Shown: one piece after another, positions 6,917 to 22,677 of the stretch | Layout of the letters: every line of letters starts with the position of its first letter | Position numbering within the stretch: position 1 is the stretch's first letter | IMG/VR virus record: IMGVR_UViG_3300028712_000015 | Location: 1 to 22,889 of that record | DNA: 22,889 nt | Direction: 5' to 3' (one strand) | From: a virus | Position numbers and translations under genes: made by a program | The notes under the pieces: generated by a model | Told to the model about the DNA's origin: nothing | What the model saw: only the letters and a program-made list of their open reading frames with translations | Databases searched by the model: none

Positions 6917-7489
6917 TTATGCGACGCGGAAAGATGCCTCACCGTTTCGCTTGCGATAGGCCATGAAGCCCACGCCAGCGAAGCCAGCGATTAAAAGCAC
7001 CCAAGTCGCAGGCTCAGGTACGGGTGCCACTTGCGTGACGGAGAAGTTGCCGCCATAGCCTGCGGTCGCTCCGGCGTTACCGGAGATTTGCAGGTAGTAG
7101 CTGCCCTCGTCCAAGAACCCGATGCCGTTGAGCGACTGGCTCCTTGCACCAGTGTTCAGGCTCGCGAATTGCGGGCCAAACACCAGAGTGTCGTCGCCGC
7201 CGCCGGGGTCACCAACTGTCTCGTAAATCGCCGCAGCGAAATTCCCGATGTAGTTGGCACCACCGATGACGCCATCAGCAAACGTGTTGGTGGCGTTGGC
7301 GACCGCGATGTATGCTCCATCCAAAAGGGTGAAGGTGTAGTAATCGGTAAACAGTCCTGCACCCGGAGCGTTGCCGAAAGGGGCCGACGACGACGGCGGG
7401 TCAATGCCGAAGTCACTAACGACGGCGGCGCTCGCCGGGGCGGCGAGGCCTAAAGCAAGTGTGGCTGTTAACAGCAGCTTCTTTAACAT
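6917..7489 (-). CDS. PEP-CTERM sorting-signal surface protein (FxDxF-like)
   Basis: The 190-residue product has a signal peptide (MLKKLLLTATLALGLAAPAS, cut near ASA-A), a mature strand-rich domain with FTDYYTFTL, which resembles the FxDxF PEP-CTERM family, and from residue 157 a full sorting signal: VPEPATW, a hydrophobic helix (VLLIAGFAGVGFMAY) and the basic cluster RKR. Such proteins are cut by exosortase and placed at the cell surface or in the exopolysaccharide matrix. No exosortase lies in this window, so a host enzyme would be needed. The last residues after the basic cluster (FRVA) parallel the second PEP-CTERM protein (FRLA). CTAGGAG precedes the ATG. Finding this class in a phage operon is unusual. 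Confidence 0.85.
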   Translation of the reverse strand: MLKKLLLTATLALGLAAPASAAVVSDFGIDPPSSSAPFGNAPGAGLFTDYYTFTLLDGAYIAVANATNTFADGVIGGANYIGNFAAAIYETVGDPGGGDDTLVFGPQFASLNTGARSQSLNGIGFLDEGSYYLQISGNAGATAGYGGNFSVTQVAPVPEPATWVLLIAGFAGVGFMAYRKRNGEASFRVA

Positions 7490-8131: not shown

Positions 8132-8851
8132 CTACGCTAAACGAAACGCTTGACCGCCGTTGTTTTCACGCCGACGATAGGCCATGAAACCGAGACCAGC
8201 GAACCCGATGCACATTAACGCCCATGTGCTCAATTCAGGTACAGCCGCAACCTGCGGGATCGGGCTCACGTCGATGCGGAAGTGTTCGAAGTCGTTGATC
8301 TTGCCGCCGACACCAAGGTAGAGGTCCAGATCGACAATGACCTCGCCACCACTGGCGATGAAGTCAAAGCCCTTCTGCTGATTGCCGTTGCCAAGATCGT
8401 AGCCGCCACCCCCAAGCCCTGCCACACCTCCCGGAAGGTTGGTGAAGGCGAGGTTGTTGATGGTGCCATCCGGTTCTGCGACCTGCAGGAGGAAGAAGAT
8501 GTTGCCCGTTCCCTTGATGGAGAAGGCATTCTCTGTAGTACCAAGCTGGGTCGTGTTGGTGCTGTCCCAGATGGTGATATCCAGATCGCGGGTGTTCTCG
8601 ATTTTGATGCTCTGACCGCTTGCTTGTCCAGTGAACCCAGTGGTGTTGGACCGGTCGAAGAACCTTACGATCTCGTTGTTCTGGCCGTTGAGGTGACCAA
8701 GAATCAAGCGAGGATCGTTGGCATCAATGCCAGTAAACACCACGTTGGTGCCGGTGCCACCTTGTCCAGTAGTATCAAGCACAACATTTGCGCTGGCGGG
8801 TGTCACCGCCGCTAACGCAAGTAAGGCCGTAGCCATTAATAGTTTTCTCAT
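8132..8851 (-). CDS. PEP-CTERM sorting-signal surface protein
   Basis: The 239-residue product has a clear signal peptide (MRKLLMATALLALAAVTPAS, cut near ASA-N). The mature domain is Gly/Asn/Thr-rich and strand-rich, like other PEP-CTERM beta-sandwich proteins. The sorting signal from residue 204 is VPELSTW, a hydrophobic helix (ALMCIGFAGLGFMAY) and RRR. The VPELSTW form is a common alphaproteobacterial variant of PEP. It would be anchored and cleaved by a host exosortase. AAGAAGGA precedes the ATG, and a perfect terminator follows the stop. Its own terminator and leader hairpins make it look like a self-contained expression unit inside an early phage operon. The exact role is unknown; surface change of the lysogen is the most natural guess. 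Confidence 0.83.
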   Translation of the reverse strand: MRKLLMATALLALAAVTPASANVVLDTTGQGGTGTNVVFTGIDANDPRLILGHLNGQNNEIVRFFDRSNTTGFTGQASGQSIKIENTRDLDITIWDSTNTTQLGTTENAFSIKGTGNIFFLLQVAEPDGTINNLAFTNLPGGVAGLGGGGYDLGNGNQQKGFDFIASGGEVIVDLDLYLGVGGKINDFEHFRIDVSPIPQVAAVPELSTWALMCIGFAGLGFMAYRRRENNGGQAFRLA

Positions 8852-18867: not shown

Positions 18868-19514
18868 GCGACATCGACAACACTTTCGACATCAAGAATG
18901 CTTGGCAGGTCAGGCAGCGCGACATGATCCTGAAGCCATTTTTCTATGACCGATATTTTCCAGACAGGTATCGCTTTCTCGACAACAACGACCCAACCCA
19001 GCGCTACGTCGACACGCTGGTAGAAACGCCGGGCGGGCAGAAGACTGTCGAGGAGAAGATCGTGCACTGGCCCACCGACGGGACGACGGGATACACCGCC
19101 TTCGCGCTGGAGACGTGGACCTGTACGGTCCCGGGCTACGAGCGACAAGGCTGGATGTACACCTCGGTCGCCGACATCCTGATCTATGCGTTCTCGACAC
19201 CGAAGAGCGAGGTTGGCCTCAACGTCTACGTGATGGACATGCAGGCGCTGAAGAAGTGGTTCTGGGAAACCGGCGAGGAGATGTGGCCGATCACGCGCAC
19301 CAACGAGCGCAACCGCACTGAGTGCCGCGTGGTGCCGGTCAATGACGTCATCGGTGGCGGCGTGAAAACCAAGCGCTACCTGATCGGCCCCGGTTGGCCC
19401 GATTCCAATTTCTGCGAGGTGTGCTGTCGCGACGCTAGCTGGGGTTACGGTGTCAGTCTGTTGAAGGGCAAGCCGGGTCGGTGGTTCTGCCGGGAGCACA
19501 GGCCGCAGCCATGA
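18864..19514 (+). CDS. Conserved phage protein with zinc-ribbon-like C-terminus
   Basis: The 216-residue product starts with an ATGA overlap. Residues about 30-150 have a strand-rich layout, RYRFLDNNDPTQRYVDTLVE, VEEKIVHWP, TAFALETWTC and VADILIYAF, that recalls PD-(D/E)XK-like nuclease folds (D, E and E-K in order), but the match is loose. The C-terminus has FCEVCC and, about 20 residues on, FCREH, a possible CxxC...CxxH zinc site. It may be a nuclease or resolvase; this is inference. It belongs to the same operon as the methyltransferase. Confidence 0.6.
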   Translation: MSDIDNTFDIKNAWQVRQRDMILKPFFYDRYFPDRYRFLDNNDPTQRYVDTLVETPGGQKTVEEKIVHWPTDGTTGYTAFALETWTCTVPGYERQGWMYTSVADILIYAFSTPKSEVGLNVYVMDMQALKKWFWETGEEMWPITRTNERNRTECRVVPVNDVIGGGVKTKRYLIGPGWPDSNFCEVCCRDASWGYGVSLLKGKPGRWFCREHRPQP

Positions 19515-19696
19515 AGACCAAGCCGCTCACCAAATACGAATCGCTGGCGTACCTGCTCGGTCAGTACGGCGACAAACGGATGACGCGAGAGGAATTCTGG
19601 AAAGAGATGAACTCGCGCGGCTACACGCAGAGCGATATCGACACGTGGTGCATTCGATACCACGAACTAACCAGCAAGGAAAAACCGGGAGAGTAA
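19511..19696 (+). CDS. Small hypothetical phage protein, last gene of the rightward operon
   Basis: ATG at 19511 overlaps the previous stop as ATGA. The 61-residue product (MKTKPLTKYESLAYLLGQYG at the start) is helical with REEFWKEMNSRGYTQSDIDT in the middle, a spacing like a winged-helix or HTH core. Its stop lies inside the terminator hairpin. Function unknown. Confidence 0.62.
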   Translation: MKTKPLTKYESLAYLLGQYGDKRMTREEFWKEMNSRGYTQSDIDTWCIRYHELTSKEKPGE

Positions 19697-19714
19697 TTCT
19701 CCCGGTTTCCTTTT
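19682..19714 (+). terminator. Intrinsic terminator of the rightward operon
   Basis: AAACCGGGAGA (19682-19692) and TCTCCCGGTTT (19698-19708) form a perfect 11-bp stem with a 5-nt loop, followed by CCTTTT. The left arm contains the last codons of the gene and the stop TAA is in the loop. It ends the operon just before the pentamer array begins. Confidence 0.88.
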
Positions 19715-21236
19715 GCCTGCCACTCCGCGACGTGACCAACCCGAACATGCACGACCCTACCGAGCCCAGCCTGCCTGACCTAGCCTCGCGTCACCCAACC
19801 CATCCTCGTCTCGCCATGCCTCACGTCACCTGTGCGTGCCTAGCCTGCCGTGGCTCACCTAGCCGCTACATGCCAGACCTCGCCACGCCCAACCTTGCCT
19901 GCCGTGCCAATCCTCGCCACGCCCGGGCCGTCCTTGCCTCGCCGCGACAGACCCTAACTTGCCTGCCTCGCTGCGCCTTACCCAGCCGCGCCTAGCCATA
20001 CTGAGCCAGTCCGCGCCTGCCGTGCCTTGCCCCATCGTGCCCCGCCTCGCTGCGCCATACCAAGCCCAGCCTGCCTTGCCAGACCTAGCCTTATCCTGCC
20101 GGACCAAAACACGCCTCGCCTGCCACGCCTGACCACAACCTGCCCCACCGCAACGAACCCGACCGCGTCAAGCCAAGCCCAGCCTGCCACGTCACGCCGC
20201 AACAGAGCTAACCGCAACCAGCCATGCCTTGCCAAACCGAAGCCCGCCCAGCCTGCCTCGCCATGCCGTGCCTCGCCAGAGCCGACCCCGGCCTGACCGG
20301 GCTCGCCTTGCCGCGCCTGCCGCGCCAAACCCCACCAAGCCGGACCGTGCCATATCCGGCCTCGCCGCACCTCGCCTGCCTAACCTTGCCCAGCCACGCC
20401 GCACACTGCCTCACCAAGCGCCGACGCGCCTTGCCCAGCCTGCCCGACCTTGCCTCGCACGAACACACCTTGCCGTACCTCGCCTGCCATGCCTTGCCTG
20501 ACCCGACCACAACTAGCCGCCCGCGCCAGACGTCGCCTGCCACACCAATGACCTACCTTGCCCAGCCATAACGTGCCTGCCATGCCACGCCACGCCCGGC
20601 CTGACCGTGCAACACCGAGCGCCGCCGAAACCGAGCCATGCCTGCCATACCTTGCCTCGCCGTGCCCAGCCGTGCCCCTCGCCGCCTAACCGCGCCTGCC
20701 TTGCCTCGTCGCACCTGATCTCACCCCACACGATCACACCATGCCTTGCCTGCCACGCCATGACTTACCGGGCCGCGCCTTGACCTACCCGGCCATGACA
20801 TGACCTGACCTGACACACCGCGCCTGCCAAGCCTCGCCGTGACCGAGCTAGACGTGGCCAGACTACCTCGCCTGCCTCGCCGCGACATGCCTCGTCTCAA
20901 CCGGACTAGCCTCAACTCGCCATCGCCAAACGCGCCACACCATGCCTGCCTTGCCCAAACCTAATCGGACACAACACGCCGCGCCTCGCCGCGCCCTGCC
21001 TGACCAATCCCGGCCCGACCTCACCAGTCCTGCCCAGCCCGGCCTCGGCCCGCCATACCCTGCCGCGACGCACCTAACCTCGCCCGGCCTAACCGCGCCT
21101 GCCACGCCGCGACTTGCCATATCATAACTCACAACAACTCGCCGGGCCTTGCCTGCCTGACCTAACCGAGCCCAACCAGACCGCGCACAGCCGCGCCTCA
21201 ACGTACCTCACCTCACCGTGCCTGCCATGCCAAGCA
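19713..21236. repeat. Degenerate pentanucleotide (NNRCC) array with 4-nt punctuation
   Basis: The stretch between the terminator and the leftward gene is one long array. From 19722 to 20484 I parsed 143 pentamers, with 4-nt TGCC units between blocks: 134 of 143 pentamers end in C, about three quarters end in CC, position 3 is mostly G or A, and positions 1-2 vary freely. GCCTGCC occurs 25 times (from 19715 to 21220), each marking a 4-nt slip; 19 of 24 intervals equal 5n+4, and 54 bp is the commonest (7). The pattern holds to about 21236 with a few irregular blocks. The opposite strand is GGYNN repeated, a (G2N3)n series. ORFs in it on both strands are composition effects. It lies between two converging transcription units. 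Function unknown. Confidence 0.92.
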
Positions 21237-21239
21237 AGC

Positions 21240-21794
21240 TCACGGTGCCGGTGATGGCTCCGGCCCGCGCGGTGATGCGCTGCCACCGTCATCGTCGTCG
21301 CCATCGTCGTCGCGGCTGCCTAGCTCGTTGGCCGCCATCATGATCTCGGCAAGCGCGTTTTCGAAACGCTGTTCTAGATCGAACACAACAGCCAGACCTA
21401 TCGCGCGGTTGATCGCCGAAGCGATCCGGTCGCACTCCGCCTGCAGCACCGCCCTTTTGGTTGGTCCGCTTCGCGCGATTCTTACTGTGCGGATAAACGA
21501 CGACTCGGGAACGCGCGGATCGCTGACGTAAACCGGCGTCGCGATCTTGGCGTCACCGTAAACCACCATCACACGCACCTCGCGGATAAGCTCGCGCGCT
21601 CGATCTTCCCAGTGTGCTTGTGCAGCCTCTTGAACGTTCCAATTAAATTCGAGGGTGAGCACCTCATAGCTTGGGTGCGTTGGGTCCTGCGCTGCCGCCA
21701 CCACCACCTTCGGTATCGCATGGCCTGTTTCATCCTCGCATGCGCGGATCGCGGCATCGAGTTCTCTTTGGCGTTTGTCTGATCTACTGCTCAC
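21240..21794 (-). CDS. Hypothetical phage protein with acidic tail, GTG start
   Basis: GTG at 21794 is preceded by AAAGGAGCGAGACA; upstream codons of the open frame cross a terminator hairpin. The 184-residue product has helices with charged residues (RQRELDAAIRACEDETGHAI), a strand-rich centre (IREVRVMVVYGDAKIATPVY) and a second helical part (QAECDRIASAINRAIGLAVV). It ends in a poly-Asp stretch (DDDGDDDDGG). Such tails are seen in DNA mimics and single-strand-binding proteins, but no such role is shown here. Its stop abuts the pentamer array. Confidence 0.65.
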   Translation of the reverse strand: MSSRSDKRQRELDAAIRACEDETGHAIPKVVVAAAQDPTHPSYEVLTLEFNWNVQEAAQAHWEDRARELIREVRVMVVYGDAKIATPVYVSDPRVPESSFIRTVRIARSGPTKRAVLQAECDRIASAINRAIGLAVVFDLEQRFENALAEIMMAANELGSRDDDGDDDDGGSASPRGPEPSPAP

Positions 21795-21810
21795 TGTCTC
21801 GCTCCTTTCA

Positions 21811-21844
21811 AAAAAAATGGCGGCGACCATAATTGATCGCCGCC
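21811..21844 (-). terminator. Intrinsic terminator of the leftward gene at 21853-22677
   Basis: GGCGGCGA (21819-21826) and TCGCCGCC (21837-21844) form an 8-bp stem with a 10-nt loop. Read leftward it is followed by ATTTTTTT (from 21818 down). It lies 8 bases past the upstream gene's stop and about 25 bases before the GTG of the next. Confidence 0.88.
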
Positions 21845-21852
21845 GCTTTCGT

Positions 21853-22677
21853 TTACTGCACCGGCACCTGTGTCGGCTGCGGCTTCGGTTTGCCGTTACC
21901 CTTGGACGAGGGCACGGTTTTCTCACGACGCTCGGTCTCCTCATTGAACCACTGATATAGCTCAGCGGAATCCTCGTTGAAGAACGTAGGGGTCTCCAGC
22001 GCAGCTTCCTGCGCTATGCGCGCCTGTTGCTTCATGATACGCACGAAGTCCTTGTTGTCCGGGCTCACTACCTCGAAGCGACCGTACTGTCCGCCCTTCT
22101 GCGGGCGGTAGTCGCCGATGCCGACGATGAGACCGGCAGCATCAAGCAGGTTGATGATCTGCTCTTTCCCGATCAGCGACTTGATGTAGCTGATGTCCAC
22201 CGTGCAGCACCATTCCGGCAGATATGCGCGCGTGCGCACGTCCGGTGTTCTGGCCATGTCACTGGATCGCACCATATCCATGCCCAGCGTGGGCGTGCCA
22301 TAGATATTGATCTGTGTGCTGACGACGCCGACAAGCCGCAGGATTTGCGCCTTGGTTGCTCCGGGCAGGTCGAGCGCTGCCGCTGCCAGTGCCTTCGAGA
22401 ACGCGCCAGCCGGATAGTGGATCGCCGTCGGTTCTTCTTCCGAGCGGTTGCGGTAGCAGCACTCACGAAATTCGTTGAGCGGATCGTGCTTTAGATTCTC
22501 CGCCTTCGCTGCCGCGTTCTTCTTGGCGGCAGGCAACAGCAATTCTTGCCACGCCTTGAACGCGAACCGATGCATGATCATCGGCGAAGCACCGAGGATC
22601 GCGCAACGTACAATGTCAGGCTCGATCTTCTTGATCATGATCGCCTGATCGGTGTCGTCTTTTTTCTTCACAGCCAT
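21853..22677 (-). CDS. Conserved phage protein with Gly-rich loop (possibly RAMP-like)
   Basis: CAAGGAGCAAACTAAA precedes the ATG at 22677. The 274-residue product has GASPMIMHRFAFKAWQELLL, HYPAGAFSKALAAAALDLPG, VVSTQINIYGTPTLGMDMVR, VRTRAYLPEWCCTVDISY and AAGLIVGIGDYRPQKGGQYG followed by RFEVV. The last stretch (GIGDYRPQKGGQYGRF) resembles the Gly-rich loop of RAMP-fold RNA-binding proteins, but there is no other sign of that family. I know the general pattern as a recurring phage protein of unknown role. The tail is Pro/Lys-rich. Confidence 0.65.
   Translation of the reverse strand: MAVKKKDDTDQAIMIKKIEPDIVRCAILGASPMIMHRFAFKAWQELLLPAAKKNAAAKAENLKHDPLNEFRECCYRNRSEEEPTAIHYPAGAFSKALAAAALDLPGATKAQILRLVGVVSTQINIYGTPTLGMDMVRSSDMARTPDVRTRAYLPEWCCTVDISYIKSLIGKEQIINLLDAAGLIVGIGDYRPQKGGQYGRFEVVSPDNKDFVRIMKQQARIAQEAALETPTFFNEDSAELYQWFNEETERREKTVPSSKGNGKPKPQPTQVPVQ

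What the first reader, a model, noticed from the sequence alone, without database searches (positions are those of the whole stretch)
19713..21236. 1.5-kb degenerate pentanucleotide array with variable first two bases
In a phage where most genes overlap, 1.5 kb is given to units of the form NNRCC. In the part I parsed (19722-20484), 134 of 143 pentamers end in C while positions 1-2 look unrestricted. Neighbouring copies are not identical, so simple recent slippage does not explain it; the frame of five is kept while content varies. This suggests selection on a 5-nt period, or repeated mutation with a fixed anchor. I know of no described phage element with this structure.
Basis: seen in the sequence. 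Interest (0 to 1): 0.92.

Follow-up and report, generated by a model that had tools for sequence, protein, structure and literature searches.

The report
Phage VIPR guide-RNA array
The odd five-letter repeat is very probably a 1.5-kb cassette of about 25 guide RNAs belonging to a recently described phage weapon (VIPR, a relative of CRISPR's ancestor), and at least two of its guides appear to be aimed at genes of sister phages while mismatching the phage's own copies.

Summary
The array is real (19716-21235). On the minus strand it reads (GGYNN)n, and the frame slips by one base at about 25 GGCA tetramers, so its true mean period is 4.92 nt, not 5.0.

It is not an orphan repeat. Of these, 77 carry a homologue of one phage protein within 861 bp, 76 of them on the GGY strand. 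In the window this protein is 21853-22677(-). Its family profile matches PDB 36pp, 'SUSP1 Vipr protein' (E 1e-41), and its predicted fold is a CRISPR RAMP.

This is a VIPR system (bioRxiv 2026, PMC13142463): GGY is the scaffold, and NN dinucleotides pair with DNA, skipping one base.

Here each GGCA-to-GGCA block behaves as one guide. Under the 1-nt-skip rule only, two guides match sister phages at 25/28 and 23/26 bases (own alleles 20/28 and 19/26). None of 385 guides from unrelated phages reaches E<1e-4. A sister phage's array has a 16/16 match in the window phage's helicase gene (own allele 11/16), which is only suggestive.

Verdict: new member of a recently described kind. Target evidence is computational; expression and silencing are untested.

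The parts
19716..21235 (-). vrRNA (guide) array: about 25 blocks of 8-14 GGYNN pentamers separated by GGCA tetramers
   Evidence: read on the - strand because vipr, accessory gene, array and terminator are collinear there
21853..22677 (-). vipr gene (274 aa), RAMP-family protein, phrog_4652
   Evidence: Profile of 61 homologues hits PDB 36pp SUSP1 Vipr at E 1.3e-41; AF2 model pLDDT 87 matches Csm3/Csm5/Cmr RAMPs, Foldseek E 8e-6 and Z up to 11.3
21240..21944 (-). candidate vap (VIPR accessory) gene, 234 aa, phrog_15946; overlaps the vipr 3' end
   Evidence: Homologues lie beside vipr/array in about 27 independent loci and in cluster F mycobacteriophages; no Pfam or fold match
19689..19703 (-). 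intrinsic terminator closing the array transcript (hairpin extends to about 19708; the + strand copy serves the convergent gene)
   Evidence: RNA fold -39.8 kcal/mol, z -5.8
19776..19845 (-). guide block of 14 NN units; reads YT[HQ][DE][DE][IM][DE][DE][CW][CW][DE][DE]Y[HQ]; matches sister phages 25/28 with 1-nt skip
21158..21222 (-). guide block of 13 NN units; reads T[DE][DE]T[DE]A[CW]AL[CW]SY[HQ]; matches a conserved motif of a RuvC-like gene in sister phages 23/26
19850..19899 (-). guide block of 10 units; 17/20 match in a RecT-like gene of sister phage G005 (suggestive only, E 0.04)
19511..19694 (+). 61-aa ORF; the phage's own allele of the gene matched by guide 19776-19845 in sister phages (own match only 20/28, at 19622-19663)

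Best explanation
The locus 19689-22677 (minus strand) is a VIPR system: vipr, an accessory gene, a long vrRNA array and a terminator. The array is transcribed as (GGYNN)n. Vipr, a Cas7/RAMP-like protein, would coat it using the GGY anchors. Each GGCA-to-GGCA block is one guide whose NN dinucleotides pair with DNA, with one target base skipped per unit, mostly at codon wobble positions. The guides are aimed at homologous genes of related, competing phages and probably silence them, while the phage's own alleles are mismatched. Shown here: the array, the protein family, the association, and the skip-1 targets with controls. Inferred from the preprint: RNP assembly, DNA binding, silencing. Inferred here: that GGCA marks guide boundaries, and that mismatch gives self-sparing.
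For: Array statistics. Of 102 loci found by DNA pattern or DNA similarity alone, 77 hold a Vipr homologue within 861 bp (median 11 bp), 76/77 on the GGY strand. The profile of these homologues matches the solved SUSP1 Vipr at E 1.3e-41; RAMP fold. NN content fits codon positions 1-2 best in 33 of 43 loci. Window guides match sister phages at 25/28 (E 1.7e-6) and 23/26 (E 2e-5) at skip 1 only; nothing below 0.01 at skips 0, 2, 3 or with reversed order. At E<0.1: 6/19 window guides versus 17/385 guides of unrelated phages; at E<1e-4: 2/19 versus 0/385. Both matches run over the whole block between two GGCA. Own alleles only 20/28 and 19/26. Sister phage G005 has an 8-unit guide matching 16/16 in the window phage's helicase gene, own allele 11/16. 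The preprint describes the same GGY/NN code and rule.
Against: No exact full-length target was found; the best have 3 mismatches. Only 2-3 of 19 testable guides have a recognisable target. The relatives were chosen by sharing the RuvC-like gene, one of the two target genes. E-values assume uniform base composition (partly offset by the decoy guides). No structured 3' tail like SUSP1's separates the blocks. No expression data. The 16/16 match of G005 includes 4 bases from its punctuation, and one of 385 decoys reached a similar E (4.8e-4).
Confidence: 0.95

Rival explanations
1. A C-rich, G-poor Rho-utilisation (rut) or decoy RNA made from the plus strand, ending transcription of the rightward genes.
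For: The + strand is C-rich and G-poor (C 714, G 321 of 1520) and lies just downstream of a + strand gene.
Against: In 76 of 77 loci with Vipr the gene is collinear with the G-rich strand, so the C-rich strand would usually be antisense. Rut needs no GGY/NN period, no GGCA marks and no codon-like NN content. An intrinsic terminator already sits at the end.
Confidence: 0.02
2. A minisatellite or selfish repeat without function, expanded by slippage or unequal recombination of a ~54-bp unit and then diverged.
For: A super-period of 54-64 nt between GGCA marks could record block duplications.
Against: NN diverged completely while GGY stayed; the same design recurs in about 100 diverse phage contigs, mostly beside one protein family; guides hit sister-phage genes under one specific rule.
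Confidence: 0.02
3. A conventional CRISPR array or mini-array carried by a phage.
For: RAMP-like protein beside a guide array; alternation of constant and variable parts.
Against: No ~30-nt repeats and contiguous spacers; constant and variable parts alternate every 2-3 nt; skip-0 (contiguous) reading gives no target; no Cas family by Pfam or NCBIfam.
Confidence: 0.005
4. Assembly or sequencing artefact.
For: Long low-complexity repeats are prone to misassembly.
Against: Same array in separately named IMG/VR contigs; same design in cultured, finished phages Saal and Donkeykong.
Confidence: 0.005

Closest known systems
VIPR systems (Viral Interference Programmable Repeat; bioRxiv 2026.04.26.720920, PMC13142463)
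   Same: Phage-encoded RAMP-family Vipr, accessory vap gene, guide RNA of alternating GGY and hypervariable NN, 1-nt-skip targets in competing phages with the skip at the wobble position
   Different: A single array of about 25 guides separated only by GGCA, without the structured tails seen in SUSP1; the vap belongs to phrog_15946, function unknown. The preprint mentions staggered/overlapping and ribozyme-interspersed arrays in other types, whose details (supplement) could not be read
SUSP1 VIPR (type II, experimentally characterised; PDB 36pp)
   Same: Vipr homologous (profile E 1.3e-41), same GGYNN code
   Different: SUSP1 has four ~100-nt vrRNAs, each with a folded 3' tail (preprint; sequence seen)
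Class 1 CRISPR effectors (Csm3/Cas7, Cmr, type VII)
   Same: RAMP fold of the protein (Z up to 11.3); RNA-guided recognition with periodic unpaired positions
   Different: CRISPR guides are contiguous with every sixth base unpaired; here 2 of 5 guide bases are informative; no CRISPR repeats or adaptation genes

Membership tests
VIPR | Phage-encoded RAMP-family Vipr protein with RRM core and glycine-rich loop | tested here: met
   phrog_4652 family; profile hit to PDB 36pp SUSP1 Vipr E 1.3e-41; window protein alone E 0.0035; predicted RAMP fold; invariant G186, R191, G199
VIPR | ncRNA of tandem GGY/NN repeats with hypervariable NN | tested here: met
   At DNA level: 199 of 267 pentamers exactly GGYNN, all 16 NN used
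VIPR | About 9-16 repeats per vrRNA | tested here: met
   Blocks between GGCA hold mostly 8-14 pentamers; the two guides with targets have 13 and 14
VIPR | Accessory vap gene next to vipr | tested here: met
   21240-21944(-), family conserved beside vipr in about 27 loci; biochemical role not tested
VIPR | Non-contiguous DNA recognition, 1-nt skip | tested here: met
   Sequence level only: skip-1 matches 25/28 and 23/26 in sister phages, none at other skips, 0/385 decoys below 1e-4; binding not testable here
VIPR | vrRNA expression and co-purification with Vipr; silencing | not testable with these tools
   Needs sRNA-seq, pull-down and reporter assays
VIPR type II (SUSP1-like) | Each vrRNA ends in a constant folded 3' tail | tested here: not met
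   Blocks follow each other with only GGCA between them; no Rfam family in the array. So it is not filed as type II
CRISPR-Cas class 1 | CRISPR repeats with contiguous spacers and cas genes | tested here: not met
   No such repeats; no skip-0 targets; no Cas family by Pfam/NCBIfam among the proteins scanned

The most novel reading that the evidence does not exclude
Sister phages of one lineage wage reciprocal VIPR warfare: each carries guides against the other's copies of shared genes (RuvC-like resolvase, RecT, helicase, a small ORF next to the array) while its own alleles are mismatched. The guides sit in a tail-less array of about 25 in which GGCA alone marks guide boundaries, and the VIPR module itself is swapped between sisters (Vipr 27% identical while about 35 kb of aligned genome is 73% identical).
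Probability: 0.55. Interest if true: 0.75.

Novelty: new member of a known kind. Interest (0 to 1): 0.6.

Why it matters
It is an independent, sequence-only confirmation of the newly proposed VIPR code in an uncultured phage lineage other than the SUSP1 and P. fulva clades studied in the preprint. It finds the system from the repeat side rather than the protein side, and names candidate natural targets. It also suggests that phages may aim guides at their closest relatives' versions of their own genes, which raises a testable self/non-self question: how many NN mismatches spare the owner. The array design (GGCA as the only mark between about 25 guides) makes the question of vrRNA processing concrete.

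Tried and rejected
Multimeric ring (TRAP-like, 11 x 5 nt), RecT filament, G-quadruplex, nucleosome-excluding [(G/C)3NN]n and rut ideas were considered from the anatomy and dropped once the Vipr association appeared. Fixed ring stoichiometry: block sizes vary within one array. Coding: no frame is open through the array. Rfam: nothing in the array and no hammerhead in 12 array loci at gathering threshold. Target searches without result: local set of 1.2 Mb of mostly unrelated phage loci (no excess over controls); exact scans for guides at 20071, 19899, 21222 and 19845 in viral contigs and for 21222 in genome contigs gave none or only chance hits. Window Vipr in bacterial genomes: none. Vap: no Pfam, PDB-sequence or fold match. 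Host not identified. The preprint's supplement (types, staggered arrays) could not be read, so the VIPR type is not assigned.

Full report
OBSERVATION. The array is present at 19716-21235 and is far above chance: model score 822 bits, lag-5 autocorrelation z 17.7. Its strict period is not 5.0. The spectrum peaks at 4.92 with power 71 against a shuffle maximum of 3.5, while power at 5.0 is at background. The reason is a tetramer, TGCC on the plus strand or GGCA on the minus strand, found at about 25 boundaries spaced 40-84 nt (20 of 24 spacings equal 5k+4). Read on the minus strand the unit is GGYNN: 199 of 267 pentamers fit exactly, 265 keep two of the three anchor bases, and all 16 NN dinucleotides occur. 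The array starts 5 nt after the stop codon of 21240-21944(-) and ends at an intrinsic terminator.

THE ARRAY BELONGS TO A PROTEIN. Scoring these stretches, plus two mycobacteriophages found by DNA similarity and a contig with the window's own array, left 102 non-redundant loci with arrays. Of these, 77 encode a homologue of window 21853-22677(-) (phrog_4652, unknown function) within 861 bp of the array (median 11 bp), and in 76 of 77 the gene is collinear with the GGY strand. No Vipr sequence was used to choose them. Many of these arrays share the 4.90-4.92 mean period. Cluster F mycobacteriophages Saal and Donkeykong carry the same pair.

IDENTITY. A literature search turned up one preprint (read): VIPR, phage-encoded RAMP-family Vipr proteins with vrRNAs of alternating GGY and NN, in which NN pairs with double-stranded DNA with one skipped base per unit, used against competing phages. 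Membership was then tested. A profile of 61 sequences (the window protein and homologues from these loci) hits PDB entry 36pp, 'SUSP1 Vipr protein', at E 1.3e-41; SUSP1 was not in the profile. AlphaFold2 on an alignment of 60 of these sequences gives pLDDT 87. Foldseek and VIA-align match Csm3, Csm5, Cmr and type VII RAMP subunits (best E 8e-6, best Z 11.3). The neighbouring 21240-21944(-) is a conserved companion (phrog_15946) of vipr in about 27 loci and fits the role of a vap gene; it has no Pfam or PDB match.

THE CODE. If NN pairs with codons at a one-base skip, NN should look like codon positions 1-2. In 33 of 43 loci the NN content fits codon positions 1-2 (sense 21, antisense 12) better than 2-3 (10) or 3-1 (0). 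In the window the guides read like peptides in the sense direction. Two of them resemble the phage's own proteins: guide 19776-19845 the 61-aa ORF 19511-19694, and guide 21158-21222 the motif TDESDAAALWSFQ of a RuvC-like protein just outside the window (Gumbel p about 1e-4 each, none of 1500 shuffles). The RuvC-like label rests on my reading of the sequence; Pfam gave no match. The guides match these own genes at only 20/28 and 19/26 bases.

TARGETS. A search with the RuvC-like protein brought in sister phages. There the same guides match 25/28 (YTQDDIDSWCEQYH in G004, G005, G013; FTQEDIDRWCDEYH in G010; E 1.7e-6) and 23/26 (TDEADACALWSYQ in G009; TDESDACALWDYQ in G004, G005, G013; E 2e-5) at skip 1, in frame, across the entire block between two GGCA marks. 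Skips 0, 2 and 3 and reversed unit order give nothing below E 0.01. Against the same 19 contigs, 385 guides from the other array loci give none below 1e-4 and 17 below 0.1; the window's 19 guides give 2 and 6. A third guide (19850-19899) matches a RecT-like gene of G005 at 17/20 (E 0.04, suggestive). One caveat: the sisters were picked by the RuvC-like gene, so only the other target gene was found without selection for it. No site is an exact match.

RECIPROCITY. Sister phage G005 has its own array and a Vipr that is only 27% identical, although the two phages share about 35 kb at 73% nucleotide identity. One G005 guide (8 units) matches 16/16 in the helicase gene of the window's phage and of five others (antisense of PTKSDMLF), while G005's own allele (PTRSDMLF, with different codons) matches 11/16. 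Because one of 385 decoys reached a similar E-value and 4 of the 16 bases lie in the punctuation, I call this suggestive.

MECHANISM. Shown at sequence level: array, Vipr family, RAMP fold prediction, collinear operon with terminator, skip-1 targets in relatives, mismatch of own alleles. Inferred from the preprint's experiments on SUSP1: RNP formation, dsDNA binding and transcriptional silencing. Inferred here: GGCA marks the limits of single guides, because the two matching guides fill the space between two GGCA exactly. How the RNA is cut, or whether overlapping RNAs are made, is open.

VERDICT. The element is a VIPR guide array, so it is a new member of a recently described kind. It is not of the SUSP1 type, since folded tails are missing. 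What is added here is the array-first demonstration across 102 loci, candidate natural targets with controls, and signs of mutual targeting between sister phages.

Noticed in passing
L011 637-1197; L101 74-827; L087 610-1432; L057 7465-8163; L081 5698-6056: Other arrays use different marks between pentamer blocks: a ~50-nt hairpin element every 10-12 pentamers (L011), GTTGAGAAGAAAA-type spacers (L101), A-rich spacers (L087), TGCGATGCC-type marks (L057, L081). No Rfam RNA in the arrays of 12 loci scanned at gathering threshold.
   Followed up: partly
L133 3976-4229 (Saal), L134 4001-4353 (Donkeykong): Cluster F mycobacteriophages carry Vipr (Saal gp51, Donkeykong gp49), a phrog_15946 companion and a 250-350 bp array; annotated gp48 of Donkeykong lies on the array and is probably not a gene.
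   Followed up: partly
phages collection: Gordonia phages Ecliptus, ODay, Pipp and UmaThurman and Pseudomonas phage vB_Pae_LESphi2 encode Vipr homologues annotated as hypothetical.
   Followed up: no
L062, L111, L123, L124, L050, L108: Contigs with two separate arrays 0.5-1.5 kb apart with genes between them, often vipr.
   Followed up: no
G005 (L233) versus G001: VIPR module seems replaced between sister phages: Vipr 27% identical while about 35 kb of genome aligns at 73% nucleotide identity.
   Followed up: partly
window 6917-7489 and 8132-8851 (-): Two secreted-looking proteins with PEP-CTERM-like C-termini (PEPATW...GFAGVGFMAYRKR), unusual cargo for a phage; host hint only.
   Followed up: no
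window 20540-21000: Blocks in the middle of the array contain many irregular units (indels, degenerate triplets), while the blocks with recognisable targets lie near both ends; could be decayed old guides.
   Followed up: no
25 array loci without a detected Vipr, e.g. L009, L068, L113, L103: Some strong arrays have no recognised Vipr in the held DNA; may be truncated contigs, divergent Viprs or satellites borrowing one.
   Followed up: no
L091 2739-3109: The only locus with Vipr on the strand opposite to the GGY array.
   Followed up: no
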